Assembly (NCBI GenBank): GCA_027053355.1
Contig: JALUDX010000004.1
Coordinates: forward strand, 30,537 to 66,659
Direction of reading: 5' to 3'
DNA from: Anaerolineales bacterium
GTDB taxonomy: Bacteria; Chloroflexota; Anaerolineae; Anaerolineales; DRMV01
DNA: 36,123 bases
Shown here one piece after another: positions 12,338 to 36,121 of this stretch. The notes under the pieces were generated by a model. The model did no database searches and was not told the DNA's origin. It worked only from the letters and a program-made list of their open reading frames with translations. The translations under genes were made by a program, and so were the position numbers. The first letter of the stretch is position 1; each line of letters opens with the position of its first letter.

Positions 12338-12421
12338 TAGTAGCGAAAGGGGGCGGTTTTGGTGTTTTCAGTGTCTGAAGGGAAAACTTTCCCCTTCCTC
12401 ATTTGCTTTTGGAGGAATGTG

Positions 12422-15073
12422 ATGCAGCAAAGAACAAGAACATGGTTGCTTGGGGGAGTGTTGATTGCCCTGGTGGGGTTGACCATGGGGTGGGCCGTAT
12501 TTTCGGCAACGGCAGCCCCAGCCGTCGTGTTGAGTGATGGTGGGCCGTCTATCATGTCGCCTGTGCATTATCAACAGACCGATACGTTGAGAGAGTTGTC
12601 TTCCCGACCTCAACCTGCAGTGCCTGAAAACAAAGCCTTAGCAGCCTGGCGCGCCCAACCCCACCCCCTCCCTTCGGCTGCACGCGGTTTGGGGCACGAC
12701 CATGGCACGAGCGATTGGTCGCGGGTGCAAAGTTCCGCCCCCGAGATCTTGGCCATGCCTACCCCCGTGGCTGCTTTTGATGGCATTGACCATCATAACG
12801 GCAGAGGCATCCCTCCTGATACCGACGGCGCGATCGGCTGGGATCCGACAACTGCGAAGAAGTACTACTTCCAGACCATCAATTCTGCGTTTGCTATTTG
12901 GGACGTAAGCACGCCCTCTTCGCCTCACCAGGTTATTAGCCCTACAGCCAACAACGTCTTTTGGGATGGGTTTGGCACCCTGTGCGAAACCCACAACGAC
13001 GGCGACCCCATTGTGCTCTACGACCGGATGGCCCACCGCTGGTTGTTCAGCCAGTTCGCGGTGGATCGCGACGCACACGAGTATCATGAATGCATTGCGG
13101 TTTCCAGCAGTGCTGATCCTACCGGCACCTGGTATGCTTACGACTATCAGTTCAGCAAGTTTAACGATTACCCCCACTTTGGCGTGTGGCCGGATGGCTA
13201 CTACATGACCGTGAATCAATTTAATGATGATGATTCTTGGGGAGGGGAGGGCGTCGTAGCCTTTGAGCGCGAAAAAATGCTGGCCGGTCAAAGCGCTCGT
13301 GAGATATATTTCGACTTAGGTAATACAAATTTGTTCTACGCTGGGCTATTGCCTTCTGACTTGGAAGGCAACAACCTGCCGCCGGCGGGCACGCCCAATT
13401 TTTTTATGGAATGGGTTAATGTTACCGGCATTGGCAACACCGACGCGTTATACATTTGGGAGTTTCATGTAGATTGGGCGACGCCGTCGAATAGCACCTT
13501 TGGATCTAACGCTCAGCACGACCCCAACGCTATTGTGGGCACTGTCGACGTGGACCCCGATATGTGTGGTTGGGCGAGAAACTGCATCCCGCAGCCCAAC
13601 GGCAATGGTTTGGACGCCATCGCCGACCGGTTGATGTACCGCTTGGCTTTTCGGGTGCTCAACGACGGCACGTTCACGGTGGTGGGGAACCATACCGTTG
13701 ACGTGGACGGGAACGACCACGCAGGTATCCATTGGTTCCAGTTGCACTACGACGGGTCGGCCTGGTCGATGGGGCAAGAAGGTGTCTACGCGCCCGACGC
13801 CAAGCATCGCTGGATGGCCAGCGCGGCTACAGACAAACTGGGCGACCTGGCGTTAGGCTTTTCGGTAAGCAGCAGTAGCGTGTATCCCTCTATTGCCTAC
13901 GCTGGCCGGTTGGCTTCTGACGCAGCAGGTATTTTGGCCCAAGGCGAGCATACCCTGGTCACCGGCAGCGGCTCTCAGGAAACCGCCAATCGGTGGGGCG
14001 ATTACAGTGCCTTGACCCTTGACCCCCAAGACGACTGCACTTTCTGGTACACCCAAGAATACGTCGCCGAAGATGGGTTCTTCGTCTGGAAAACGCATAT
14101 TGGGGCCTTTGCCTTCGATGCCTGCCTGGCCACGGTGTTAGATAACGACTTGTCAGCCACCCCGATGACCCTTACCCGCCCCCAGAGCGTGCAGCAAAAC
14201 GCGGCATACGCTTCCTTTGGCGCCGAAGATCCTACTATTTGTAGCCAGCAGGCCTACAACACCCTTTGGTATGCTTGGACGCCTACGGCAGACCGCAAGG
14301 TGGGCTTTGACACCTTTGCCAGTAACTTCGACACGCTTTTAGGGGTGTACACTCGCTCGGGCGACACGTTCAACCCTGTGGCCTGCAACGATGACGACGC
14401 CTCGACGACCCAATCGCATGTTTCCTTCCAGGCGCAGGCCAACACCACCTACTACATCGTGGCTGGCGCGAAGACCCAGGGCGCGGCAGGCAACCTGCAC
14501 CTGCACCTCTCTTCTTTCCCTGACGTGACCGGCGATGCGTGGTATTGGAAGTACGTCGAAGGGTTGGTCGCTCAGGGTGTTACCTTGGGCTATGAGGATG
14601 GTACCTATCGGCCCGGCAACCACGTCACCCGCGCCGAAATGGCGGTGTTCCTGTTGCGTTCCATCCATGGCAGCAGTTATAGCCCGCCTCACGCTTCTTC
14701 TTACTCGTTCAGCGACATTAACGGCTGTTGGGCTGCCGACTGGATCGAGGAAGCCAAGCAAGAAGGGCTGGTCAAAGGTTACCCCGACGGCACGTATCGG
14801 CCGGGCAACCCGGTTACCCGGGCGGAAAGCGCGGCACTGCTGCTGAAAGGCAAATATGGCGGCGATTACACGCCTCCCCACGCCTCTTCTTACTCGTTCA
14901 GCGACATCGACGGCCATTGGGCTGCCGACTGGATTGAAGACTTGCATCAAAAAGGCTTTGCCAACGGCTACCCCGACGGCACTTACCACCCCAACAACCC
15001 GGTCACCCGCGCTGAAATGGCGACCATGTTAGACTCGGTGTTTGGTTTTACCGTGCCCAACCTGACGCCGTAG
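12422..15073 (+). CDS. Large secreted protein with PPC-like and three SLH domains
   Basis: 883 aa. The start ATG follows GGAGGAATGTG. The signal peptide (about 1-35) contains LLGGVLIALVGLTMGWAVF. The bulk (about 100-570) is an all-beta exoprotein region with GRGIPPDTDGAIG, HRWLFSQFAVD and DYPHFGVWPDGYYMT segments, reminiscent of a beta-propeller; I cannot assign an enzyme. A pre-peptidase C-terminal (PPC)-like domain (about 575-697) includes NTLWYAWTPTADRKVGFDTF and LLGVYTRSGD. Three SLH domains (about 698-883) end the protein, each with GYxDGTYxPxNxVTRAEMA. It is expected at the cell surface, bound to wall polymer. Two hairpins follow the stop. Confidence 0.9.
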   Translation: MQQRTRTWLLGGVLIALVGLTMGWAVFSATAAPAVVLSDGGPSIMSPVHYQQTDTLRELSSRPQPAVPENKALAAWRAQPHPLPSAARGLGHDHGTSDWSRVQSSAPEILAMPTPVAAFDGIDHHNGRGIPPDTDGAIGWDPTTAKKYYFQTINSAFAIWDVSTPSSPHQVISPTANNVFWDGFGTLCETHNDGDPIVLYDRMAHRWLFSQFAVDRDAHEYHECIAVSSSADPTGTWYAYDYQFSKFNDYPHFGVWPDGYYMTVNQFNDDDSWGGEGVVAFEREKMLAGQSAREIYFDLGNTNLFYAGLLPSDLEGNNLPPAGTPNFFMEWVNVTGIGNTDALYIWEFHVDWATPSNSTFGSNAQHDPNAIVGTVDVDPDMCGWARNCIPQPNGNGLDAIADRLMYRLAFRVLNDGTFTVVGNHTVDVDGNDHAGIHWFQLHYDGSAWSMGQEGVYAPDAKHRWMASAATDKLGDLALGFSVSSSSVYPSIAYAGRLASDAAGILAQGEHTLVTGSGSQETANRWGDYSALTLDPQDDCTFWYTQEYVAEDGFFVWKTHIGAFAFDACLATVLDNDLSATPMTLTRPQSVQQNAAYASFGAEDPTICSQQAYNTLWYAWTPTADRKVGFDTFASNFDTLLGVYTRSGDTFNPVACNDDDASTTQSHVSFQAQANTTYYIVAGAKTQGAAGNLHLHLSSFPDVTGDAWYWKYVEGLVAQGVTLGYEDGTYRPGNHVTRAEMAVFLLRSIHGSSYSPPHASSYSFSDINGCWAADWIEEAKQEGLVKGYPDGTYRPGNPVTRAESAALLLKGKYGGDYTPPHASSYSFSDIDGHWAADWIEDLHQKGFANGYPDGTYHPNNPVTRAEMATMLDSVFGFTVPNLTP

Positions 15074-20134: not shown

Positions 20135-22855
20135 TTATTCGCCCAACTTCTTCTCAACCCACCCGGCCACCGCGGCTAAAGCCTCATCCAGCCGCGCGGG
20201 GTCTTTGCCGCCGGCCTGGGCTAAGGTGGGCTTGCCGCCGCCACCGCCGCCCACGAAGCCGGCCACGAATTTCGCCAGTTCGCCTGCGTGCAGGCCTTTT
20301 TTGGTCAGCGGCTTGCCCACCGCGGCCACGATGAGGGGGCGCCCGTCGCGCACGGTGGCGAGCACTGCCACGCCTTCGGGGTGTTGCTGGCGGAAGCGGT
20401 CGGCCAGGCGGCGCAGGGCGTCGGCGTCGGCATCGGGCACGCGCACTGCCAGCACGGGCACGCCCGCGACGCGCGGCGGCTCGGCAATTTGCCGCTCTAC
20501 CGCGGCTTCGGCCACCCGGCGGCGCAACGCGCCGGCCTCTTTGCGGGCTTCGGCCAGTTCCGCCTGCAGGTGCGCCACCTTTTCGGGCACGCCCTCGGGC
20601 GGCGATTTCAGCAGCGCGGCGGCTTCTTCCAGCGCGTCCATGCGCCCGCGGGCAAAGCGGTAGGCTCCCCGCCCCGTCACGGCTTCAATGCGGCGCACCC
20701 CCGCCGCGGCGCTCCCCTCGCTCACGATGAAGAACGCTCCGATGTCGGCGGTGCGGCTCAGGTGCGTGCCGCCGCAGAGTTCGCGGGAAATCGGCTCCGC
20801 GTCGCCGATGGTGATGGTGCGCACCACCTCGCCGTATTTCTCGCCGAAAAGCGCCATCGCTCCCTCGGCAATGGCTTCCTCGCGCTTCTTGAAGGCCACC
20901 CGCACGGGGTAATCGGCGGCCACCGCGTCGTTCACCCATTGCTCAATGCGGCGCAACTGCTCGCGGGTCAGGGCTTCGGGGTGGGTGAAGTCAAAGCGCA
21001 GGCGGTCGGGTGCGACTAACGAACCCGCCTGCCGGGCGTGCTCGCCCAAAATCGCGTGCAGCGCGGCGTGCAGCAGATGGGTCGCGGTGTGGTTGCGCAT
21101 GATGTCCTTGCGGCGGGAGGCATCCACCGCGGCCAGGGCCGCATCGCCCACGCGGGGCGTGCCCTTCACCACCTCGCCGATGTGCACGATCAAGCCCGCG
21201 GCGGGCTTGCGGGTGTCGGTCACACGGATTTCCCAGCGCGGCTCGGCAACCGAAACGATGGTGCCGGTGTCGGAAACCTGCCCGCCCGATTCCACATAGA
21301 AGCACGTTTCGGGCAAAATCACGCCCACGATGTCGCCCTCGGCCACGCTTTCCACGGGCTGGTTGTCTTTCATCAGGGCGAGCACCTCGCCTTCCACTTC
21401 CAGCGCGCCGTAGGGGTCGTAGCGCACGCCCTCGGGCGGCAGTTTGCCCTCGGCTTGCAGGCGCTCGGCAAGGGCGCGGTAGGCGTCCACGTCGTCTTCC
21501 ACCAACGGGCCAAAGGCTTTGCCCTTGCCCGAGGCCAGGCGGTGGGCATCCATGGCCTTGTGGAAGCCGGGCTCGTCGACGTCCATGCCGTGCTCGCGGG
21601 CGATGTCGCGGGTGATTTCCAGCGGCAGGCCGTAGGTGGCGTAGAGTTGGAAGGCGTCTTCGCCGCCGATGATGCCCTTGCCCTCGGCCTGCAGGCGCGC
21701 CATCAGGTGCTCAAGGTAAGCGGTGCCGGTTTCCACCGTACGGGCGAAGCGGATTTCCTCGCGGGTGATGGTTTCCAAAATGGCATCGCGGTGCTTGACG
21801 ATTTCGGGGTAAACATGCCCAAAGCGTTCAATCACGGTTTCGGCGACTTGAGCCATGAAGGGTTCGGTGAAGCCGATTTTGGCGCCAAAGCGGGCCGCGC
21901 GGCGGATGATCATGCGGCAGACATAGTTGCGGCTTTCGTTGCCGGGCACCACGCCGTCGCCGATGAGGAAGGTGGCCGCGCGGGTGTGGTCGGCGACCAC
22001 CCGGTAGGCGACCAAATGCTCCTGCCGCTGGGCGTCGGTGTGCCCCGCCAGCCGCTGGATGGTGTCCATGATGGGCGTGAAAAGGTCGGTGTCGTAGGAA
22101 TTGTCCACGCCCTGCAAAATCATGGTGATACGCTCCAGCCCCATGCCGGTATCCACGCCGTGCTTGGGCAGGGGGGAACGGGAGCCGTCGGGCGCCTGGT
22201 TGAACTGCATGAAGACCAGGTTCCAAATTTCCAAAAAGCGGTTGTCGGGGTTTTCGTCCAAGTGGTAGGCCAGTTCCTCACCGTAAAGTTGGCCGCGTTC
22301 GGGGAAGAAATCGTAGTGAATTTCGGAAGTGGGGCCGCAGGGGCCGACGTCGGCCATCTGCCAGAAATTGGTGGCGTCGCCCAGGCGGGCAACCCGTTCC
22401 GCAGGCACGCCCACTTCCTCCACCCAAATGCGGTAGGCTTCGTCGTCGGAGTGGTGGACGGTGAAGTACAGCCGCTCGGGGGGGAGGCCGTAAACTTTGG
22501 TCAGCAGTTCGTAAGCCCAGGTGATGGCCTCGCGCTTGAAATAGTCGCCAAAGGAAAAATTGCCCAGCATCTCAAAGAAAGTGTGGTGGCGGGGGCTGGG
22601 GCCGACGTTTTCCAGGTCGTTGTGCTTGCCCGAGACGCGCATACAGCGCTGGACGGTGGTGGCGCGGGTGTAGGGGCGCTTGTCCAAGCCGAGGAAAACG
22701 TCCTTAAACTGCACCATGCCGGCGTTGGTGAAGAGCAGGGTCTGGTCGCCGCCGGGCACGAGGGAAGAAGAGGGCACGATGGTGTGCCCCTTGGATTCAA
22801 AGAATTTGAGGAAGGTGTCGCGGATCTGGTCGCCGGTCATCTTTTTGTTGGGCAT
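20135..22855 (-). CDS. alaS: Alanyl-tRNA synthetase
   Basis: 906 aa from ATG behind AGAGGTTTCACC (MPNKKMTGDQIRDTFLKFFE); the in-frame extension upstream is repeat DNA. It charges tRNA-Ala in two steps. The class II catalytic core (1-250) contains GHTIVPSSSLVPGGDQTLLFTNAGM split over motif 1, and RHHTFFEMLGNFSFGDYFK (motif 2). The editing domain (about 560-720) carries the zinc-binding HTATHLLH and CGGTH motifs. The C-Ala domain (about 760-906) ends with a Gly-rich GGGGGGKPTLAQAGG segment of the DHHA1 type. Complete. It has a long leader of about 340 nt filled with repeats; no T-box is recognisable. Confidence 0.97.
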   Translation of the reverse strand: MPNKKMTGDQIRDTFLKFFESKGHTIVPSSSLVPGGDQTLLFTNAGMVQFKDVFLGLDKRPYTRATTVQRCMRVSGKHNDLENVGPSPRHHTFFEMLGNFSFGDYFKREAITWAYELLTKVYGLPPERLYFTVHHSDDEAYRIWVEEVGVPAERVARLGDATNFWQMADVGPCGPTSEIHYDFFPERGQLYGEELAYHLDENPDNRFLEIWNLVFMQFNQAPDGSRSPLPKHGVDTGMGLERITMILQGVDNSYDTDLFTPIMDTIQRLAGHTDAQRQEHLVAYRVVADHTRAATFLIGDGVVPGNESRNYVCRMIIRRAARFGAKIGFTEPFMAQVAETVIERFGHVYPEIVKHRDAILETITREEIRFARTVETGTAYLEHLMARLQAEGKGIIGGEDAFQLYATYGLPLEITRDIAREHGMDVDEPGFHKAMDAHRLASGKGKAFGPLVEDDVDAYRALAERLQAEGKLPPEGVRYDPYGALEVEGEVLALMKDNQPVESVAEGDIVGVILPETCFYVESGGQVSDTGTIVSVAEPRWEIRVTDTRKPAAGLIVHIGEVVKGTPRVGDAALAAVDASRRKDIMRNHTATHLLHAALHAILGEHARQAGSLVAPDRLRFDFTHPEALTREQLRRIEQWVNDAVAADYPVRVAFKKREEAIAEGAMALFGEKYGEVVRTITIGDAEPISRELCGGTHLSRTADIGAFFIVSEGSAAAGVRRIEAVTGRGAYRFARGRMDALEEAAALLKSPPEGVPEKVAHLQAELAEARKEAGALRRRVAEAAVERQIAEPPRVAGVPVLAVRVPDADADALRRLADRFRQQHPEGVAVLATVRDGRPLIVAAVGKPLTKKGLHAGELAKFVAGFVGGGGGGKPTLAQAGGKDPARLDEALAAVAGWVEKKLGE

Positions 22856-22891
22856 GGTGAAACCTCTTGGGGAATGGGGTGGTAACGCAAA

Positions 22892-23069
22892 GGTTAACGC
22901 AGAGGCGCAGAGAAACGCCAAGGACGCCAAGGAAGTAATGCAAAGACGCAGAGGAAGCAGAGACGCAGAGAGCGCAAAGAGGTTAACGCCAAGGGCGCCA
23001 AGAAACCAAAGGACGCCAAGAAAGTAACGCAAAGACGCAGAGAAAGCAAAGGCGCAAAGAGCGCAAAGA
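22892..23069. repeat. 89-bp tandem duplication in the alaS leader
   Basis: 22892-22980 and 22981-23069 are imperfect tandem copies, each starting GGTTAACGC and ending GAGCGCAAAG. They are built from smaller purine-rich units such as ACGCAGAG, ACGCCAAG and GCGCAAAG. Low-complexity, no coding signal. Confidence 0.85.
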
Positions 23070-23606: not shown

Positions 23607-23645
23607 GACGAGTAGGTGACCGGGTCATCTACTCGTCTCGTTTTT
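23607..23645 (+). terminator. rpsO terminator
   Basis: GACGAGTAG (23607-23615) pairs with CTACTCGTC (23629-23637), and the stem extends inward by a further four pairs including one G-U. TTTTT at 23641-23645. It lies 14 bp after the stop. Confidence 0.9.
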
Positions 23646-23663
23646 GAGCAAGGCGTTTGTCCA

Positions 23664-23732
23664 GGGGGACGCCAGGGAAGGCTTGGTTCCCCCTTTTATC
23701 CCAATTCAACCTGCCCGCCGGTTGGGAATTGG
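23664..23732 (+). promoter_or_regulatory. Structured pnp leader: two hairpins
   Basis: GGGGGA/TCCCCC (23664-23669/23688-23693) followed by TTTT may be a second terminator. Next, CCAATTC/GAATTGG (23701-23707/23726-23732) with inner AACC/GGTT forms another stem. PNPase commonly represses its own mRNA through a cleaved leader hairpin; the same could apply here. Confidence 0.5.
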
Positions 23733-23807
23733 CGCGCGCGGTCAACCTTGGGTTTGCCGTGGGCGCCAGTCCCTGACCGGACGGGCCCCTGTAACGGAGG
23801 TTATCTG

Positions 23808-26009
23808 ATGAAACCCGAGAGCAAGATCTACCAAATCCCGGTCGGGAACAAAGAAATCGTCATCGAGACCGGCAAACTGGCCATGCAGGCCAACGGTGCG
23901 GTGACCGTGCGCATGGGCGACACCGTGGTGTTTGCCGCGGCCACTATGAGCAAAGAGCCGCGCGAGGGCATCGACTTCTTCCCCTTGCGGGTGGACTACG
24001 AAGAGCGGATGTACGCGGGCGGCCGCATTCCCGGCTCGTTCTTCCGCCGTGAAGGACGGCCTTCAGAAGAAGCCATCCTCACCGCTCGCCTGGTCGACCG
24101 CCCCATCCGCCCCCTCTTCCCCAAAGACCTGCGCAACGATGTTCAGGTGGTGCTGTATTCCATCTCGGCCGACGAAGAACACCCCATCGACATCCTGGCC
24201 ATCAACGCGGCCTCGGCTGCGCTGATGATTTCCGACATCCCGTGGGCCGGGCCGGTAGGCGCGGTGCGCATCGGCCGCATCGGCGGCGAGTTCGTAGTCA
24301 ACCCCACCTTCCCCGAACTGGAGCAGTCGGATTTAGACCTGCGCATTGCGGGGACGCGTGAAGCCATCCTGATGGTAGAAGCCGGTGCGCAAGAGGTGCC
24401 CGAAGACGTCATGGTCGAGGCTTTGGCTTTCGGCCACCAGGCGTTGCAGCCGATGATCGACATCCAGGAACGCATGGCAGCCGAAATCGGCAAACCCAAG
24501 CGCGAATACACGCCCTTCGTGGTCGAAGAAGACCTGAAGGCGCAAATCGCCGACCTGGCGGCGCAGCGCCTGCGCGACCTGCTGGCCGCCCCCCACAGCA
24601 AAGCCGAACTCAACGATGGCCTGGATGCGCTCCGCGAAGAAATGCTCGCCACCTTGGCCGGGGACGACGCGGCCCAGGCGCTGAAGGTCAAAGTCGCGTT
24701 CGACGATGTGCTCAAAACCGTGGTGCGGCAACGCATTTTAGAGGAAGGGGTACGCCCCGACGGCCGAGGCTATACCGACATCCGTCCCATCTGGTGCGAA
24801 GTGGACATCAGCCCCCGGGCCCACGGCTCAGGCCTGTTCACTCGCGGCGAGACCCAAGTCCTCACCTTGGCCACCTTAGGCACCCCCCGAGAAGCCCAGG
24901 AAATCGACGGCCTCACCCCCCTGGAAAGCAAACGCTACATCCACCACTACAACTTCCCGCCGTTCTCGGTGGGCGAAGTGCGCCCCATGCGCGGGGCTTC
25001 GCGGCGAGAAATCGGCCACGGCGCTCTGGCCGAGCGCGCCCTGCTGCCTGTCATCCCGCCCGAAGACCAATTCCCCTACACCCTGCGGCTGGTTTCGGAA
25101 GTGCTCTCTTCCAACGGCTCTACCTCGATGGCCTCGGTGTGCGGCTCAACGTTGGCGCTGATGGATACCGGCGTGCCTATCAAAGCGCCGGTGGCCGGTA
25201 TCGCCATGGGCCTGATCAAAGAAGGCGAACGCTATGCGGTGCTTACCGACATCCAGGGCATGGAAGACCACTTAGGCGATATGGATTTCAAGGTCGCGGG
25301 CACCGAAAAGGGCATTACCGCGTTGCAAATGGACATCAAAATTGCCGGCATCACCAAAGAAATCATGCGCCAGGCGTTGGCGCAGGCGCGCGAGGCGCGG
25401 CTGTACATTTTGGGCAAGATGCTGGAAGTGATCCCCGAACCGCGGCCGCAGTTGAAAGCCCACGCGCCGCGGATGCTGGTGGTGCGCATCCCGGTGGAGA
25501 AAATCGGCGCTATCATCGGCCCCGGCGGGAAGACCATCCGCGCGCTGCAAGAAGAGACCGACACCAAAATCGACATCATGGAAGACGGGTTGGTTTACAT
25601 TGCCTCGACCCACGGCGGCGGCGCAGAAGAGGCCCGCGACCGCATCGAAGCCATGACCGAATCGCCCGAAATCGGGCGCATCTACACCGGCAAGGTGGTG
25701 CGGGTGACCGATTTTGGCGCTTTCGTGGAAATTTTGCCCAACACCGACGGCATGGTGCACATTTCGCAACTGGATTCTGAACCGGTGCGGCGGGTGGAAG
25801 ACATTGTCCGCGTGGGCGACGAGATTACCGTGATGGTCACCGACATCGACCCCACGGGGCGCATTCGCCTTTCTCGCCAGGCCGTGCTGGAAGGGTGGAC
25901 GCCCGAAGAGGCCCGGGCGCGCGACAAGGCCAACCGCGAGCGCCGTGGTCGCAACAGCAACCGCCGCGACAACCGCCGCGGCAGCCGGGATCGCAACCGA
26001 CGCCGCTAA
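23808..26009 (+). CDS. pnp: Polyribonucleotide nucleotidyltransferase (PNPase)
   Basis: 733 aa from ATG behind CGGAGGTTATCTG. A trimeric 3'-5' phosphorolytic exoribonuclease of mRNA decay. Domains: RNase PH 1 (about 12-145, with [20 protein letters not shown]), a helical linker, and RNase PH 2 (about 325-545, with [15 protein letters not shown] and SDI-like [20 protein letters not shown], which contains the catalytic Asp pair). KH domain (about 555-610) with IIGPGGK, S1 domain (about 622-695) with [16 protein letters not shown] very basic Arg/Asn tail ([14 protein letters not shown]) ends the protein, likely RNA-binding. The linkage with rpsO is conserved widely. Confidence 0.97.
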
Positions 26010-26034
26010 CCCCGACGGCCCGACCGTGACCCCC

Positions 26035-26350: not shown

Positions 26351-26380
26351 TCACTCTTCCGTGCAAATTTACCTTTTTTG

Positions 26381-26389
26381 TGTCATAAT
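26381..26389 (+). promoter_or_regulatory. gyrA promoter candidate
   Basis: TGTCATAAT: extended -10 with CATAAT at 26384-26389; GTGCAA 17 bp upstream is a weak -35. The gene starts 70 bp downstream. Confidence 0.5.
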
Positions 26390-26459
26390 ATCCCTGCACA
26401 AAGCCGCAGCGCCTTTGAGCCACTGCATCTCGGCACTTTGCCGTAAAGGATGGGCTTTT

Positions 26460-28865
26460 ATGGAAATAGGACTTGTCCGCCGGATTGACATCAGCGAAGA
26501 AATGCGCCAGGCCTACCTGGACTACGCGATGAGCGTCATCGTGGCCCGCGCCCTGCCCGACGCCCGCGACGGTCTCAAACCCGTCCAGCGGCGCATCCTC
26601 TACGCCATGTACGACATGGGCTTGCGCAGCAACAGCGCCTACAAGAAATCAGCCCGCATTGTCGGCGAGGTGTTGGGCAAGTACCACCCCCATGGCGACC
26701 AGGCCGTGTACGACGCCATGGCGCGCATGGCGCAGGATTTTTCCATGCGCTACCCCCTGGTGGACGGCCAGGGCAACTTTGGCTCGGTGGACGGCGACCC
26801 GCCCGCCGCGATGCGCTACACCGAAGCCCGCCTCAGCCCCATCGCCGAAACCCTGCTCGCCGACATCGCCAAAGACACCGTCGATTTCGCCCCCAACTTC
26901 GACGAAAGCCTGCGGGAACCCACCGTGCTCCCCGCGGCCTTCCCCAATTTGCTGGTCAACGGCGCTACCGGCATCGCGGTGGGTATGTCCACCAACATCC
27001 CGCCGCACAATTTGGGCGAGGTGATCGACGCCTTGGTGCTGATGCTGGAAAAGTGGACACGCCTGGACAGCCTGAGCGTAGACGACCTGATGAAGCACAT
27101 CCCCGGGCCAGATTTCCCCACCGGCGGGCTGATCGTGCAGGCCGAGGGGGAGGATGGCCTACGCAGCGCCTACAGCACCGGCCGCGGCAAAATCACCGTG
27201 CAGGCCTTAGTGCACACCGAAAGCATCGGCCGTGGCCGCCACGCGCTCATCGTTACCGAATTGCCGTATGCGGTCAACAAAGCGTCTTTGTTGGAACGCA
27301 TTGCCCAACTCACCCGCGACGGCAAACTGGAAGGCATCACCGACCTGCGCGACGAATCCGACCGGCAGGGAATGCGCATCGTCATCGAACTGGGCAAAAA
27401 CGCGGCGCCTGACGAGGTGCTGGCCGCCCTTTACAAACATACCCCCCTGCGCACCACCTTCGGCGTGATCATGCTCGCCTTGGTAGCCGGCTCGCCCCGC
27501 CTGCTCCCCCTCAAGCAAGCGCTCAAGATCTACCTGGAACACCGGATCGAAGTCGTCCGCCGGCGCAGCGAGCACGACCTGGCGCGCCTGCGCCAGCGCG
27601 CCCACATCCTGGAAGGGCTACTCATCGCCCTCAACAACCTGGATGAGGTCATCCAGACCATCCGCAAATCGCGCACCGCGGAGACCGCGCACAAAAACCT
27701 GCGCAAGCGCTTTGGCTTCACCCCCCAGCAGGCGCAGGCGATTTTGGATATGCCCCTGCGCCGCCTGGCCGCGCTGGAGCGCAAAAAATTAGAAGCCGAA
27801 TACAAAGAGACCAAAAAGCAAATCAAAACCCTCGAAGCCTTGCTGCGTTCGCCCAAGAAAATGCGCAGCGCCATCGCCGAGGAACTGCTGGCCCTCAAAG
27901 CCCAGTTTGCCGACCCGCGGCGCACCCGCATCGTGCACCTGGCCGCGGAGCAGGCCGGCAAAGCCCTCACCGTAGACGCCCTGCTGCCCGACCAGACCGT
28001 GTGGGTGGCGTTAGACGCGGCGGGTCGTCTGGCGCGCCTTCCGGCAGGCAAAGCCCCGCGCCTGAGCGGCCGCCACGCGCCTGTGGCCGTGACCAGGGCC
28101 AGCACCCGTGGGGTGCTCTATCTCATCGCCGCGGACGGTCAGGCTGCCGCCCTGCCCGTCCACACCCTGCCTGAAGCCGCGACCCCTGCCGAAGGCGCGG
28201 CCTGGCACACCCTGACGCCGGGCCTGCGTGACGCGCCGCCTGTGGCCTTGGCCGCGCTCCAGCCTGAGCAGCAGGGCTACATCCTCACCGTGACCCGGGG
28301 GGGCATGGTCAAAAAGAGCGCATTGGCCGCCCTGCCCGGCCCCGGCGCGCAGCCTTTCACCCTGGTCAAAGTGGGGGAAGGCGATGCCCTGCGCAACGTG
28401 CTGCTCACCGGGGGCAAAGACGATTTGCTGCTGGTCACAGCCCAGGGCATGGCCATCCGCTTTTCCGAAGCCGATGTCCGCCCCATGGGGCTGGTGGCCG
28501 CGGGCGTGGCGGGCATCAAACTCAAGCCCGGCGACGAAGTGGTCGCCGCAGTCAAAGTGACGGCGAAGAAAGACGCGGCCGTGCTGTTGGTCGCCAGCAC
28601 CGGCAGCGCCAAGCGAGTGCTGTTTGGCGAATTCCCCCGGCAAAAGCGGTACGGCCAGGGCGTGGTGGCCTGGAAACTGCCCCGCGGCGCCCGCCTGGTC
28701 GGCGCGGCCGTGGGCAAACCCAGCGCCAAGGTGGGGCTGCACTTTCGCCGGGCTGCGGCCAAAGCCGTGCGCCTCGACGCCGCGCCGCTGCGCAAACGCA
28801 GCAGCGCGCGGGGCGTTAAACTGGTACAACCCAAAACCGGCGATGAGGTCGTCGCCGTGACCTGA
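26460..28865 (+). CDS. gyrA: DNA gyrase subunit A (type IIA topoisomerase)
   Basis: 801 aa from ATG preceded by TAAAGGA. Breakage-reunion subunit: catalytic Tyr120 in [12 protein letters not shown], with [21 protein letters not shown] and [20 protein letters not shown] before it. At the position of E. coli Ser83 there is Gln81, while the Asp87 equivalent (Asp85) is kept. A coiled-coil gate lies at about 350-475. The C-terminal beta-pinwheel (about 500-801) holds a GyrA-box-like QKRYGQG only at 728-734, late in the domain, so gyrase versus topoisomerase IV cannot be settled by that motif. gyrB/parE is not nearby. The next gene starts 60 bp downstream and may be cotranscribed. Confidence 0.9.
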
Positions 28866-28925: not shown

Positions 28926-30344
28926 ATGCCCCGGGTTTACCTGCTTTCCCCCCAGCGCTACCCGCCCGAAGTGATCGCCGTGGCCTTTGCCAAGGCCTCT
29001 CGCTCGCCGCAGCCCTTAGACGAGACCGCGGCCTCGTTAGACCAGTCCAAGAGCAGCCGCTTTCACGAAAAGTGGGTCATTGGTTACGGCCACGCGTCGG
29101 TGGCCGAGCACGCGGTGTTGCACATTGCGGTGGAAGGGGTCTCCCGGCTGGCCATCGAAACCCTGGAATCGAACCGCCTGGCTTCCTACACCGAAAAGTC
29201 CACCCGCTATCAGCCCTTTGGGCCTGAAGACTTCGTCACCCCACCCGAACTGGCCGAGCGCCCCACGCTGCAGGCGCGCTATCAGCAGAGCGTGCGCAGC
29301 CTGTTTGCCGCCTACCACCGTTGCATGGACGCCGCGCGGTCTGAAATCGCCCGCCGCCACCCCCCGCAGCCGGGCGAAAGCCCCGCCCGCTGGGATGCCC
29401 GGCACCGCTCCCAATACGCCGACGTCTGCCGCTTCTTGCTCCCTGCGGCCGCGCAAGCCCACTTGGGAATTACCATCAACGCCCGCGCGTTGGCGCACGC
29501 GCTGCGCAAAATGCTTTCGCACCCCCTGGCCGAAGTGCGCTCGGTGGGCGAGGCCATCCGCCGGGCGGCTGCAGCGGAAACGCCCACCCTGCTCCGCTAC
29601 GTGGAAGCCGTGCCCGCCTGGCAGCAGGCCGACGCCGCGCTGCGGCTCGAAGCGGCCGCCTGCCCCGCAGCCGAGGACGATTGGTGCCGTCTGCTCGATT
29701 GGCGTCGTGATGGCGAGGCGCACGTTTTGGCCGCGCTGCTCTACCGCTTTTCTGCCCAGCCTTTTTCCGCCTGCCTGGCTCAGGTGGAAAAGATGCCCCC
29801 TTCGGCCCGCGGCAGGCTGGCCGAACAGGTGTTGGGCGTGTTGGGCGAGCACGATATGCCCCCGCGGGAACTGGAGTATGCCTGGTACGAATTCGACGTG
29901 CTGATGGACCAAGGGGCTTATTACGAATTCAAGCGCCATCGGATGATGACCCAGACCCTCCAACCGCTGAGCACCCGCTGGGGCTACGCTTTGCCGCGCC
30001 TGATCGTGGAAATCGGCCTGGAAGCCGATTACCGCGCGGCCATGGCCGAGGCCGCGGCCACTTATGAAGCCCTGGCTGCATGGAACCCGGACGTCGCGGC
30101 TTACGTGGTGCCCAACGCGTTCCACCGCCGTGTGCTGGCGGCCTTCAACCTGCGCGAAGCCTACCACTTTTTGCGGCTGCGCACCGCGGCCAACGCGCAC
30201 TTTTCCATCCGCCGGGTAGCCTGGCGCATGGCCGAACACATTACCGCGGTCACGCCCTTGCTGACCGCGTTTTTGCGCCTGCCCGCCGGCGAAACCTGGC
30301 AAGACGTCACCCGCCGCTATTTTGCCGCCTGGCGGGTGGAATAA
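28926..30344 (+). CDS. Tandem ThyX-like protein (divergent flavin-dependent thymidylate synthase family)
   Basis: 472 aa, about twice a ThyX (210-250 aa), start behind AGAGGAG. ThyX makes dTMP from dUMP with FAD and methylene-THF; its signature is RHRxxSxNExSxRY. The N-terminal half has YGHASVAEHAVLHIAVEGVS followed by SNRLASYTEKSTRY (82-95): the second part of the motif is kept but RHR has become SNR. The C-terminal half has YEFKRHRMMTQTLQPLSTRW (333-352): RHR (337-339) is kept, but the rest has diverged and gained two residues. So each half keeps a complementary part of one motif. It could form a pseudo-dimer with one hybrid site, or be a non-catalytic relative. Acts in the cytosol. Position after gyrA suggests a DNA-metabolism role. 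Confidence 0.8.
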   Translation: MPRVYLLSPQRYPPEVIAVAFAKASRSPQPLDETAASLDQSKSSRFHEKWVIGYGHASVAEHAVLHIAVEGVSRLAIETLESNRLASYTEKSTRYQPFGPEDFVTPPELAERPTLQARYQQSVRSLFAAYHRCMDAARSEIARRHPPQPGESPARWDARHRSQYADVCRFLLPAAAQAHLGITINARALAHALRKMLSHPLAEVRSVGEAIRRAAAAETPTLLRYVEAVPAWQQADAALRLEAAACPAAEDDWCRLLDWRRDGEAHVLAALLYRFSAQPFSACLAQVEKMPPSARGRLAEQVLGVLGEHDMPPRELEYAWYEFDVLMDQGAYYEFKRHRMMTQTLQPLSTRWGYALPRLIVEIGLEADYRAAMAEAAATYEALAAWNPDVAAYVVPNAFHRRVLAAFNLREAYHFLRLRTAANAHFSIRRVAWRMAEHITAVTPLLTAFLRLPAGETWQDVTRRYFAAWRVE

Positions 30345-30374
30345 AGCCGCGCGTCTCGCAGCCCATTTCCCCAA

Positions 30375-30388
30375 GGCCGAACGGTTAC
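30375..30388. repeat. Isolated end of the dispersed repeat family
   Basis: GGCCGAACGGTTAC, the reverse complement of a GTAACCGTTCGGCC terminus. 30345-31222 has no credible gene; it holds this end, another at 30581-30594 (GTATCCGTTCGGCC), a mini-element, a candidate RNA, a REP palindrome and the next promoter. Confidence 0.5.
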
Positions 30389-30440
30389 AGCCCTTTCCCC
30401 TTGGCGCCGCGGTGCTGGGCCAGCCGGGCATTAAAGCACC

Positions 30441-30468
30441 GAGAGCCGGGTAAACCGCCCCGGCTCTC
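30441..30468 (+). other. Hairpin with following Shine-Dalgarno
   Basis: GAGAGCCGGG (30441-30450) pairs perfectly with CCCGGCTCTC (30459-30468), loop 8 nt, no T-run. AAGGAGG follows at 30471-30477, then GTG at 30485 opening a 17-codon frame. This may be a 3'-end stabiliser of the ThyX-like mRNA or a chance arrangement. Confidence 0.4.
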
Positions 30469-30610
30469 TCAAGGAGGAGAAGAAGTGTTTGTCGCCCTTC
30501 ACCCTTCATCATACCCCTTTTCTCGTTTTCTTACTTGACGCTTACCCTACGATTACCCTACGATTGCAAACGCCACGGGGGTATCCGTTCGGCCTCAGCA
30601 GAGAGAAGCC

Positions 30611-31142: not shown

Positions 31143-31222
31143 GGCCGCGCCGTGGCAGTGTCTCTGTTCGGCCTCAGCGCGGCTGAACGGCGGTTCCAAA
31201 ATCCTGCCCCGTGGAGGTCATG

Positions 31223-32305
31223 GTGTCGCTCTCGCGACGGGATGTGCTCAAATTGGCCGGTGCAGGGCTGGGCGTGTGGGCTTTGGCCCCCTGGCTGCCC
31301 TCGCACCGTCTGCCCGCAGAACCCGCCCCCTTCCCCCAGGCGGAGCATTTGGGGCGGGTGTGCATCGGCGGCAAGGTGGAAATCAAAGCCCGCCCCGACG
31401 CGGACAGCCCCACCGTGGGCATCTTGTACGAGGACGCGGTGGTGGCCTGGGAGCGCGAGGTGGTGGGCGTGAACCTACACCGGGTAAACCAGCGCTTTGT
31501 ACAGACCCCCCAGGGCTTTATCTGGGAACCGGTGCTTCAGCCTGTCCGCAACCAGCCCAACCAGGCGTTGACTTCCTTCCCCTACGCGGCGGAGGGCATG
31601 TGGGTGGAGGTCACCGTGCCCTATGTGGATATTTTTCTGGCCAACCCGCCGGCCCGCTCGCCCTGGTTGGAGCACGCGGCCCGACCGCGTTTGTATTACA
31701 GCCAGGTGCTTTGGGTCGACCAGATCAAGAAAGACCAACAGGGGGTGGTGTGGTATCGGGTCAACGAGCGGTACGGGTCTTACGGCGATATTTTTTGGGC
31801 GCGCGCGGAGGCTTTTCGGCCTATCACCCCCGACGAAATCGCGCCGCTGCACCCCCAGGCCGAGAACAAACGGGTGGTGATCAACGTGGATTATCAGACC
31901 ATGGCCTGTTACGAGGGCAAGGAAGAGGTGTTTTTTACCCGCGTGTCCACGGGGGCAAAGTTCAACGCGGCGGGCGAGGCGGTGGACAAATGGGCTACCC
32001 CCGTGGGCGCCAACCCCATCTGGCGGAAGTTGATTTCGGTACACATGAGCGGCGGCACCACAGGCGGCGGCTACGACTTGCCCGGCATCGGCTGGGCCAT
32101 GCTATTCGTGGGCACGGGCATTTCCATCCATTCGACGTTTTGGCACAACGATTACGGCGTGCCCCGCTCTCACGGCTGTGTGAACGCCCGCCCCGAAGAT
32201 GCCAAGTGGGTGTTCCGCTGGACGTTGCCGGTGGTGCCCTACGACCCCGGCGACGTCACCATCCCCATGCCTGGGGGCACGCTGATCGAAGTGGTGGAAG
32301 GGTGA
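31223..32305 (+). CDS. Tat-exported L,D-transpeptidase (YkuD family)
   Basis: 360 aa from GTG at 31223, 5 bp after GGAGG; ATG at 31220 or GTG at 31211 are alternatives adding 1-4 residues. The N-terminus SLSRRDVLKLAGAGLGVWAL is a twin-arginine signal. An SH3-like segment (about 45-95, VCIGGKVEIKARPDADSPTV) precedes the YkuD domain (about 225-355). The catalytic motif is ISIHSTFWHNDYGVPRSHGC followed by VN, with His in IHST and Cys319 as nucleophile. Such enzymes form 3-3 peptide cross-links in peptidoglycan or attach proteins to it. Convergent with the YhaM-like gene. Confidence 0.93.
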   Translation: MSLSRRDVLKLAGAGLGVWALAPWLPSHRLPAEPAPFPQAEHLGRVCIGGKVEIKARPDADSPTVGILYEDAVVAWEREVVGVNLHRVNQRFVQTPQGFIWEPVLQPVRNQPNQALTSFPYAAEGMWVEVTVPYVDIFLANPPARSPWLEHAARPRLYYSQVLWVDQIKKDQQGVVWYRVNERYGSYGDIFWARAEAFRPITPDEIAPLHPQAENKRVVINVDYQTMACYEGKEEVFFTRVSTGAKFNAAGEAVDKWATPVGANPIWRKLISVHMSGGTTGGGYDLPGIGWAMLFVGTGISIHSTFWHNDYGVPRSHGCVNARPEDAKWVFRWTLPVVPYDPGDVTIPMPGGTLIEVVEG

Positions 32306-32501: not shown

Positions 32502-33512
32502 TCATTCCCGCTGCCCTTCTTCCTCGGGACTGAGTTCCCCTTCGCCCGCGTAAAGCCGCCGGGCCAGCAGGCGGTCGTAAGAGGTCCACACTTCGCCGGG
32601 CTGGCGTTGTTCCAGCAGCAGCAAAAAACGGTTGACCTGCGCGCTGAGGTCGTCAATTTTGGCCAACGCAATGGCTTCTAACGTCTGAGGACGGCGGGGC
32701 GAGCCCCATTCGTAGCGATTGTGGTGGGCCAAAATCATATGGCGCAGGCGGAGGGCCAATTCGGGGGGAAAGTCGGGCATCTGGGCGATGGCCTGGCCGA
32801 GCATTTCGTCGCCCAACACCACGTGACCAATCAGCCGGCCCTCGTCGGTGTAATCCAGGTTGAGCCCCCAATGGAGTTCACGCACTTTGCCCACGTCGTG
32901 CAGCAAGATACCGGCCAGCAGCAGATCGGCGTCGATTTGCGGGTACAGGTCGAGCACCGTTTCGGCCAAAGCGAGCATCTCGGTCAGGTGTTCCAGCAGG
33001 CCGGCCAGGTAGGCGTGGTGGATTTTCTTGCCCGCGGGCGCCCAGCGGAGGGCTTCGACGAAGTCGGGGTCGGCATAGAATTGGGCGACCAGCCCGCGCA
33101 GGTGGGGGTTTTGGATGCGCTCGGCGGCCTCGGCTACCTGGGCGAGCATTTCGTCGGGGTCGCGCGGGGACGCGGGGAGCATGTCGCGCCAGTCGTATTC
33201 CCCCTCTTTGGCCGGGCGGATGCGGAGGACGCGGATTTGAGGGCGATCCAGGTAGGATTCCATTTCGCCCTGGACTTTGACCACCTGCCCCACTTCGATT
33301 TGAGCGGCGGTTTCTTCCGCGTTTTCCCAAACTCGCGCCACCCGTTGGCCGCTCCGGTCGCTCAAAATCAGGGTGAGGAAGTGCCCGCGGCTGGGATCGC
33401 GGAAGGGCTCCAGGTCTTTGCGGTGGACGAGGTAGAAGCCGATAAAGCCTTCGCCCACTGCGATTTCACGCAAAAAAGGCCCTTTTTGGGGGTGTCGGGT
33501 GGTGTCGGTCAT
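32502..33512 (-). CDS. YhaM-like 3'-5' exoribonuclease (OB-fold plus HD domain)
   Basis: 336 aa. An N-terminal OB-fold (about 15-100; FLTLILSDRSGQRVARVWEN, QVVKVQGEMESY) is followed by an HD phosphohydrolase domain (about 140-315) with His165 in KKIHHAYLAGLLEHL, His205-Asp206 in LLAGILLHDVGKV, and HMILAHHNRYEWGSP. This order is that of B. subtilis YhaM, a Mn-dependent 3'-5' exoribonuclease that also acts on DNA. The C-terminal tail is acidic. Starts 12 bp after the SDR gene stop and follows GGAGAACCCC, so likely cotranscribed with it. Confidence 0.9.
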   Translation of the reverse strand: MTDTTRHPQKGPFLREIAVGEGFIGFYLVHRKDLEPFRDPSRGHFLTLILSDRSGQRVARVWENAEETAAQIEVGQVVKVQGEMESYLDRPQIRVLRIRPAKEGEYDWRDMLPASPRDPDEMLAQVAEAAERIQNPHLRGLVAQFYADPDFVEALRWAPAGKKIHHAYLAGLLEHLTEMLALAETVLDLYPQIDADLLLAGILLHDVGKVRELHWGLNLDYTDEGRLIGHVVLGDEMLGQAIAQMPDFPPELALRLRHMILAHHNRYEWGSPRRPQTLEAIALAKIDDLSAQVNRFLLLLEQRQPGEVWTSYDRLLARRLYAGEGELSPEEEGQRE

Positions 33513-33524
33513 GGGGTTCTCCGC

Positions 33525-34253
33525 TCAGGTGAGGTGCCGCCCGCCGTCCAGATGGATGATTTCGCCGGTGATGTAGGCCGGGCCGGTGAGCAGAAAGCGC
33601 AGCGTCGCGCCGACTTCTTCGGGCTGTGCCCAGCGGCTGATGGGCGTGGCGTGCAGCACTTTGGGGGCGGGCTGCCCGTCGGAAGGCGGCAGCACCGCGC
33701 CTAAGGCGATGCCGTTCACCGTGATGCGGGGGGCGAAGGCTACCGCAAGAGATTGCGTCAGCGCCACCAGCCCTGCCTTGCTGATGGTGTAGGGCAGGTG
33801 GTCGGCGCCGGGGCGCAGGGCGCGCCAATCCAGAATGTTGACGATGCGCCCCTCGGCCTCGGGCTCGGCCAGCAGGCGCCGCGCGAAGGCCTGCGAGAGC
33901 AGGAACGGTGCGGTCAGGTTGATGCGCAGGTGGCGCTCCCACGCGGGGAGGTCGGTGCTCTGCCAATCAAGGTTTTCAAAAATGGCCGCGCTGTTGACCA
34001 AAGCGTTCAGGCTGCCCAAAGCCTGCCACGCCCGCTCCACCAGCGCGGCGGCTTCTGCGGGGTTGTTCAGGTCGGCCTGCAGCAGCGCCACGGTGGCGCC
34101 GCGGGCGCGCAAAGCCGCCGCGGTTTGTTCCGCGGCCTCGCGTGAACGGCCGTAGTGCAGGGCTACGTTGCCGCCCGCTTCGGCTACGGCCTCGGCCAGT
34201 ATCTTGCCTACCCGCCGCGCCGCGCCGGTGATCAGTACATTGAGCGTCGCCAT
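33525..34253 (-). CDS. SDR oxidoreductase, pteridine-reductase/FolM-like
   Basis: 242 aa. NADPH-binding motif TGAARRVGK (9-17): TGAxRR is characteristic of pteridine reductases and FolM rather than TGxxxGIG SDRs. LVNSAAIF is the NNAG-equivalent. The catalytic Tyr155 and Lys159 (YTISK) are present, and the usual Ser is replaced by Asp142 (VNILDWRA), 13 residues before the Tyr, as in PTR1 (Asp181/Tyr194/Lys198). It may reduce dihydrofolate or dihydromonapterin/biopterin. Located between the YhaM-like gene and the mutase gene, about 3 kb from the ThyX-like gene. No folA in the window. Confidence 0.85.
   Translation of the reverse strand: MATLNVLITGAARRVGKILAEAVAEAGGNVALHYGRSREAAEQTAAALRARGATVALLQADLNNPAEAAALVERAWQALGSLNALVNSAAIFENLDWQSTDLPAWERHLRINLTAPFLLSQAFARRLLAEPEAEGRIVNILDWRALRPGADHLPYTISKAGLVALTQSLAVAFAPRITVNGIALGAVLPPSDGQPAPKVLHATPISRWAQPEEVGATLRFLLTGPAYITGEIIHLDGGRHLT

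Positions 34254-34435: not shown

Positions 34436-34436
<1 letters not shown>
34306..34436. repeat. Short tandem repeats between SDR and mutase genes
   Basis: GCGATTTAGGATTA x 2.8 (34306-34344, 14-bp period) and GGGCATCCCTGCACC x 2.6 (34397-34436, 15-bp period, reaching the mutase stop codon). The gap between them is also TGGGCATC-rich. Confidence 0.9.

Positions 34437-36121
<1,685 letters not shown>

What the first reader, a model, noticed from the sequence alone, without database searches (positions are those of the whole stretch)
28926..30344. Fused double ThyX-like protein with the signature motif split between halves
N-half: SNRLASYTEKSTRY keeps S, E, S, R, Y of RHRxxSxNExSxRY but lost RHR. 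C-half: RHRMMTQTLQPLSTRW keeps RHR but lost the rest. In ThyX tetramers the active sites lie at subunit interfaces, so a tandem fusion could build one working hybrid site, or have become a different flavoenzyme. The complementary loss is unlikely in a simply decayed pseudogene with a clean 472-codon frame.
Basis: partly seen in the sequence, partly recalled or inferred. Interest (0 to 1): 0.65.

Follow-up and report, generated by a model that had tools for sequence, protein, structure and literature searches.

The report
Thymidylate synthase with divided active site
This bacterium's only detectable enzyme for making the DNA letter T is a double version of the flavin enzyme ThyX, in which each half has kept only the active-site parts that it must lend to the other half, a division conserved across a large bacterial group and some giant phages.

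Summary
ORF 28926-30344 (+, 472 aa) holds two Thy1/ThyX domains. Each superposes on solved ThyX in a confident AlphaFold model. It is the only Thy1 gene found in a genome scored 100% complete, which lacks ThyA and DHFR.

The split is real and systematic. In 119 tandem relatives the N-half keeps the S-x-R-Y loop, and the C-half keeps RHR and the last active-site arginine. Single ThyX proteins keep all of these. Published structures show that each ThyX active site takes RHR and that arginine from one subunit, and the S-x-R-Y loop from another (PMC6514825, PMC3498832). The fusion is therefore divided along the subunit boundary of the ancestral active site.

Best explanation: a working thymidylate synthase in which two fused chains form one ThyX-like tetramer with two composite active sites and two retired ones. 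In 66 of 68 sampled Chloroflexota genomes with it, no ThyA was found.

Duplicated ThyX in Chloroflexi was noted as uncharacterised in 2009 (PMC3224940). I found no description of the division in the papers held here. Activity and stoichiometry are untested.

The parts
28926..30344 (+). tandem ThyX gene, 472 aa
   Evidence: ORF; two Thy1 matches; TIGR02170 above cut-off
28926..29645 (+). N-half (residues 1-240), ThyX fold
   Evidence: model residues 8-236 on M. tuberculosis ThyX 3gwc_E: Z 15.1, rmsd 3.6 over 207 residues
29097..29099 (+). S58, equivalent of T. maritima T55 / M. tuberculosis S71 (role B in the active site)
   Evidence: 119/119 in tandem relatives; replaced by R314 (115/119) in the C-half
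29169..29210 (+). N-half half-motif S82-Y95 (SNRLASYTEKSTRY): E86/S88/R90/Y91 equivalents kept, R78/H79 lost
   Evidence: E90, S92, R94 119/119; Y95 118/119; R at position 82 in 2/119, no H at position 83 among those counted
29430..29432 (+). R169, equivalent of T. maritima R147
   Evidence: 119/119; the C-half column (residue 392) is Q/A/S
29676..30296 (+). C-half (residues 251-457), ThyX fold
   Evidence: on T. maritima ThyX 4gtd_C: Z 17.1, rmsd 2.4 over 190 residues
29934..29942 (+). C-half RHR (R337-H338-R339); the following S-x-R-Y loop is shortened by about six residues
   Evidence: R337 and H338 119/119, R339 118/119; gap in the alignment with singles
30180..30182 (+). R419, equivalent of T. 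maritima R174 / M. tuberculosis R199
   Evidence: 119/119 in the C-half; the N-half has K195 (K or R in 26 of 30) at this column

Best explanation
The gene encodes an active, tandem-fused, divided ThyX: a flavin-dependent thymidylate synthase that makes dTMP from dUMP, methylene-tetrahydrofolate and NADPH. Ordinary ThyX is a homotetramer with four sites, each taking RHR plus a distal arginine from one subunit (role A), the S-x-R-Y loop that binds dUMP from a second (role C), and a Ser and an Arg contacting FAD from a third (role B). Here an ancestral gene was duplicated and fused, and the copies then specialised: the C-half plays only role A, the N-half plays role C and probably role B. Two fused chains should assemble into one pseudo-tetramer of four ThyX modules with two complete composite sites and two retired ones, so one FAD and one dUMP per chain. 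Shown here: both folds, the residue partition, its conservation, and sole-synthase status. Inferred: activity, assembly, stoichiometry, and which half plays role B.
For: Residue partition in 119 tandem proteins: N-half E90, S92, R94, R169, S58 119/119 and Y95 118/119; C-half R337, H338, R419 119/119 and R339 118/119. Twelve single-domain ThyX plus T. maritima ThyX keep R78, H79, R80, S88, R90, R147 and R174 13/13, and Y or F at 91. Published subunit roles: M. tuberculosis R95-97 and R199 from subunit A, S71 and R190 from B, R87, S105, R107 and Y108 from C (PMC6514825); PBCV-1 ThyX Q75 and R182 from monomer A, S88 and Q89 from monomer B (PMC3498832). Residues kept strictly by only one half fall on the expected side. 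Model pLDDT 92.8, pTM 0.89; both halves match solved ThyX. The whole two-half arrangement also matches independently predicted phage tandem proteins (TM 0.74 and 0.69). Only Thy1 gene, no ThyA, no DHFR in the genome. Tandem ThyX in 68 of 201 sampled Chloroflexota genomes, ThyA in only 2 of those, against 19 of 27 genomes with no Thy1. N-halves and C-halves each form one clade and mirror each other. Low dN/dS in both halves.
Against: No biochemical evidence. Neighbouring motif residues are not independent events, so the partition is fewer than seven separate coincidences. The N-half keeps R84 (third residue of RHR) and a Lys at the R174 column, so its loss of role A is not total. R410 (R165 equivalent) is kept in both halves and R314 replaces the Ser in the C-half, which leaves role B ambiguous. 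The genome has two thymidine kinase genes, so thymidine salvage could in principle replace synthesis.
Confidence: 0.78

Rival explanations
1. The tandem protein has become a different flavoenzyme, such as a nucleotide hydroxymethylase or a UMP/dUMP methylase like PolB, and thymidylate comes from salvage or an unrecognised synthase.
For: The contiguous signature is broken in both halves and the C-half loop is shortened; two thymidine kinase genes are present; PolB (4p5a/4p5b), a UMP/dUMP methylase, shares the fold.
Against: All published dUMP- and FAD-contacting residues listed have a conserved counterpart in one half or the other; no ThyA was found in 66 of 68 genomes with the gene; absence of DHFR fits ThyX-type dTMP synthesis.
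Confidence: 0.1
2. One half is only a scaffold, and a single modified half carries the active site alone.
For: Asymmetric pseudo-dimers with one dead partner are common among duplicated enzymes (general knowledge).
Against: Neither half has a complete set: the N-half lacks R78 and H79, the C-half lacks S88, R90, Y91 and R147 equivalents. Both halves keep invariant active-site residues, and both are under purifying selection.
Confidence: 0.08
3. A decaying, inactive duplicate.
For: Each half has lost signature residues.
Against: Clean 472-codon frame, dN/dS 0.13-0.18, conservation across 23 sampled families and phages, sole synthase.
Confidence: 0.02

Closest known systems
ThyX / FDTS, flavin-dependent thymidylate synthase (Pfam PF02511, TIGR02170; T. 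maritima TM0449, M. tuberculosis ThyX)
   Same: Fold of each half, the GHxS region, every listed FAD/dUMP residue when the two halves are pooled, and an inverse genomic pattern with ThyA.
   Different: Two modules in one chain; RHR and S-x-R-Y in different modules; probably two rather than four sites per tetramer.
Duplicated ThyX of Chloroflexi noted by Valas and Bourne 2009 (PMC3224940)
   Same: Almost certainly the same protein family: a ThyX with a domain duplication in non-Dehalococcoides Chloroflexi.
   Different: That paper says it had not been characterised and, in the passage read, does not mention the division of active-site residues.
Tandem ThyX of phages and large plasmids (Tunturiibacter phage Tunturi_5, Vibrio phages Yong MS32 and BONAISHI, Microcystis phage LMM01; Bacillus, Paenibacillus, Euzebya and Parabacteroides plasmid records)
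   Same: Where sequenced here, the same layout: N-half with S-x-R-Y, C-half with RHR; their halves fall in the same N and C clades.
   Different: 20-31% identical to the window protein; the Bacillus plasmid protein reads RHN instead of RHR.

Membership tests
ThyX (PF02511 / TIGR02170) | Profile match above the curated cut-off | tested here: met
   Thy1 179.4 bits against 24.8, two stretches, each half above the cut-off; TIGR02170 102.7 against 87.9
ThyX (PF02511 / TIGR02170) | ThyX fold | tested here: met
   C-half Z 17.1 and N-half Z 15.1 against solved ThyX
ThyX (PF02511 / TIGR02170) | Contiguous signature RHRxxSxxE/QxSxRY in one module | tested here: not met
   N-half lacks the first two residues of RHR; C-half lacks S-x-R-Y. 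Hence filed as a divided variant, not an ordinary ThyX
ThyX (PF02511 / TIGR02170) | All published FAD/dUMP side-chain contacts present somewhere in the protein | tested here: met
   R78, H79, R80, R174 in the C-half; T/S55, S88, R90, Y91 and R147 in the N-half; R165 in both (roles)
ThyX (PF02511 / TIGR02170) | Replaces ThyA in the genome | tested here: met
   No ThyA in G000; 2 of 68 genomes with the tandem have a ThyA match, against 19 of 27 without any Thy1
ThyX (PF02511 / TIGR02170) | FAD binding, dTMP synthesis, tetramer | not testable with these tools
   Needs protein

The most novel reading that the evidence does not exclude
The same division of the ThyX active site between fused halves evolved more than once. 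A second tandem ThyX in another Chloroflexota family (G126, G174, G190; 557 aa from its likely start) has HHH in place of RHR but SEQVSQRY in its N-half, and RHR plus the distal arginine but no S-x-R-Y in its C-half. It keeps the loop length and the RLCxxAQWEI segment typical of single ThyX. The AU test does not reject a shared origin (p 0.55 and 0.51).
Probability: 0.3. Interest if true: 0.65.

Novelty: new variant of a known kind. Interest (0 to 1): 0.52.

Why it matters
ThyX sites shared between subunits are known from crystal structures and mutants. Here evolution has separated the subunit roles into two linked modules, which gives a natural way to mutate one role at a time, test how many of the four sites are needed, and trace how an obligate asymmetric enzyme arises from a symmetric one. 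It also appears to be the only thymidylate synthase of many Chloroflexota, and is carried by some jumbo phages.

Tried and rejected
PNAS 2004 paper on the three-subunit site (PMC409905): not held. Model coordinates: not exposed in the Python box, so no distances between RHR and the loop. Text searches for a described divided or tandem ThyX found only the 2009 remark; subscription papers are not covered. First alignment script mis-translated the minus-strand loci and was replaced. An intermediate tandem with both motifs in both halves was looked for among the second tandem type and not found there. A common origin of the two tandem types was neither shown nor rejected. A search with the second tandem type failed because of wrong coordinates and was not repeated. 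Pseudogene: rejected on dN/dS and conservation. The long antisense ORF 29037-30512 (-) is treated as a by-product of high G+C, not a gene.

Full report
What is there. The frame 28926-30344 on the + strand is a clean 472-codon gene lying about 60 bases downstream of a gyrA/parC-type gene. Pfam Thy1 matches it twice and TIGR02170 thyX matches above its cut-off. The window lies in a 2.45 Mb genome assembly in 215 contigs, scored 100% complete, whose nearest named relatives are Anaerolineales (Chloroflexota). In that genome the two Thy1 matches of this gene are the only ones; no ThyA and no DHFR of the PF00186 type was found; two thymidine kinase genes were.

Fold. An AlphaFold2 model built on 52 tandem homologues has mean pLDDT 92.8 and pTM 0.89. 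Residues 251-457 superpose on T. maritima ThyX (Z 17.1, rmsd 2.4, 190 residues) and residues 8-236 on M. tuberculosis ThyX (Z 15.1, rmsd 3.6, 207 residues). Against predicted viral structures, the whole chain matches a 461-aa phage protein (TM 0.74) and the Microcystis phage LMM01 ThyX (TM 0.69) over nearly the full length at about 20% identity, so the packing of the two halves is reproduced in separately made predictions.

The split. The N-half was aligned with 12 single-domain ThyX proteins and a stretch of T. maritima ThyX. It keeps the equivalents of T55 (S58), E86 (E90), S88 (S92), R90 (R94), Y91 (Y95) and R147 (R169) but not R78 and H79. The C-half keeps R78, H79, R80 (R337-H338-R339) and R174 (R419), but its S-x-R-Y loop is shortened by about six residues and R147 is lost. 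R165 is kept in both (R187, R410). In all 119 tandem proteins collected, E90, S92, R94, R169, S58, R337, H338 and R419 are invariant, Y95 and R339 are 118/119. The 13 single sequences keep R78, H79, R80, S88, R90, R147 and R174 without exception. Two caveats: the N-half keeps R84 at the R80 position in 114/119, and has Lys or Arg at the R174 column in 26 of 30, so the loss of the second role there is not complete.

Why the split makes sense. In solved ThyX each of four sites is built by three subunits. For M. tuberculosis, RHR 95-97 and R199 come from subunit A; S71 and R190 from B; R87, S105, R107 and the lid Y108 from C (PMC6514825 section 9). The viral enzyme gives the same split: Q75 and R182 from one monomer, S88 and Q89 from the other (PMC3498832). 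The listed residues kept strictly by only one half therefore follow the subunit border: role A in the C-half, role C in the N-half. S58 suggests that the N-half also plays role B, but R410 and the conserved R314 of the C-half leave that open.

Function. dTMP synthesis is supported by genomics. Among 201 sampled Chloroflexota genomes, 68 in 23 family groups carry the tandem gene. ThyA was found in 2 of these, against 19 of 27 genomes with no Thy1 at all (Fisher p about 8e-12; counts transcribed by hand from the tables, and related genomes are not independent). In 64 of the 68 the Thy1 tally is exactly two matches, which fits one tandem gene and no separate single ThyX. dN/dS is about 0.13 in the N-half and 0.17-0.18 in the C-half.

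Origin and spread. In a tree of 30 tandem proteins cut in half with 13 single sequences, all N-halves form one group and all C-halves another (SH-aLRT 100 each), and the two subtrees mirror each other, as one old duplication and fusion predicts. The family includes jumbo phages and large plasmid records. A second tandem type in another Chloroflexota family shows the same partition with a different sequence; whether it arose independently is unresolved (AU p 0.55 and 0.51).

What is known. [quoted passage not shown] I found no description of the division of the active site in the open papers searched; the library does not hold most subscription journals, so prior description cannot be excluded.

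Verdict. It is a new variant of a known kind, interesting to ThyX and enzyme-evolution specialists; the decisive evidence (activity, FAD stoichiometry, structure) is experimental.

Noticed in passing
L139:1-1901, L140, L144 (genomes G126, G190, G174): A second, very divergent tandem ThyX (557 aa from its likely start) with the same complementary split: HHH...SEQVSQRY in the N-half, RHR without S-x-R-Y in the C-half.
   Followed up: partly
L147, L148, L149 (genomes G141, G197, G173): Single-domain ThyX-like proteins with KYR in place of RHR and an insertion of several dozen residues before NEASRRY; another departure from the signature, not explained.
   Followed up: no
L119:538-2094, L120:520-1905, L124:484-1926: Jumbo phages (Tunturi_5, Vibrio phages Yong MS32 and BONAISHI) encode tandem ThyX; the Yong MS32 copy is annotated hypothetical.
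   Followed up: partly
window 29091-29093 (residue 56) and the alignment column: The folate-stacking H53 of T. maritima is His in Anaerolineales tandem proteins but Asp in 16 of 119, mostly the more distant ones (GYGDDSVAE).
   Followed up: no
window 25934-26024 (-): ARAGORN reports a tRNA with a four-base anticodon overlapping the 3' end of the PNPase gene; no Rfam match reaches threshold, so probably a false call.
   Followed up: partly
window 12359-36121: Neighbouring genes by Pfam: SLH-domain protein 12359-15073 (+), alanyl-tRNA synthetase 20135-23032 (-), PNPase 23616-26009 (+), gyrase/topoisomerase IV subunit A 26361-28865 (+), YkuD L,D-transpeptidase 31211-32305 (+), HD-domain protein 32502-33512 (-), short-chain dehydrogenase 33525-34253 (-), methylmalonyl-CoA mutase 34436-36121 (-). 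No obvious nucleotide-metabolism operon.
   Followed up: no
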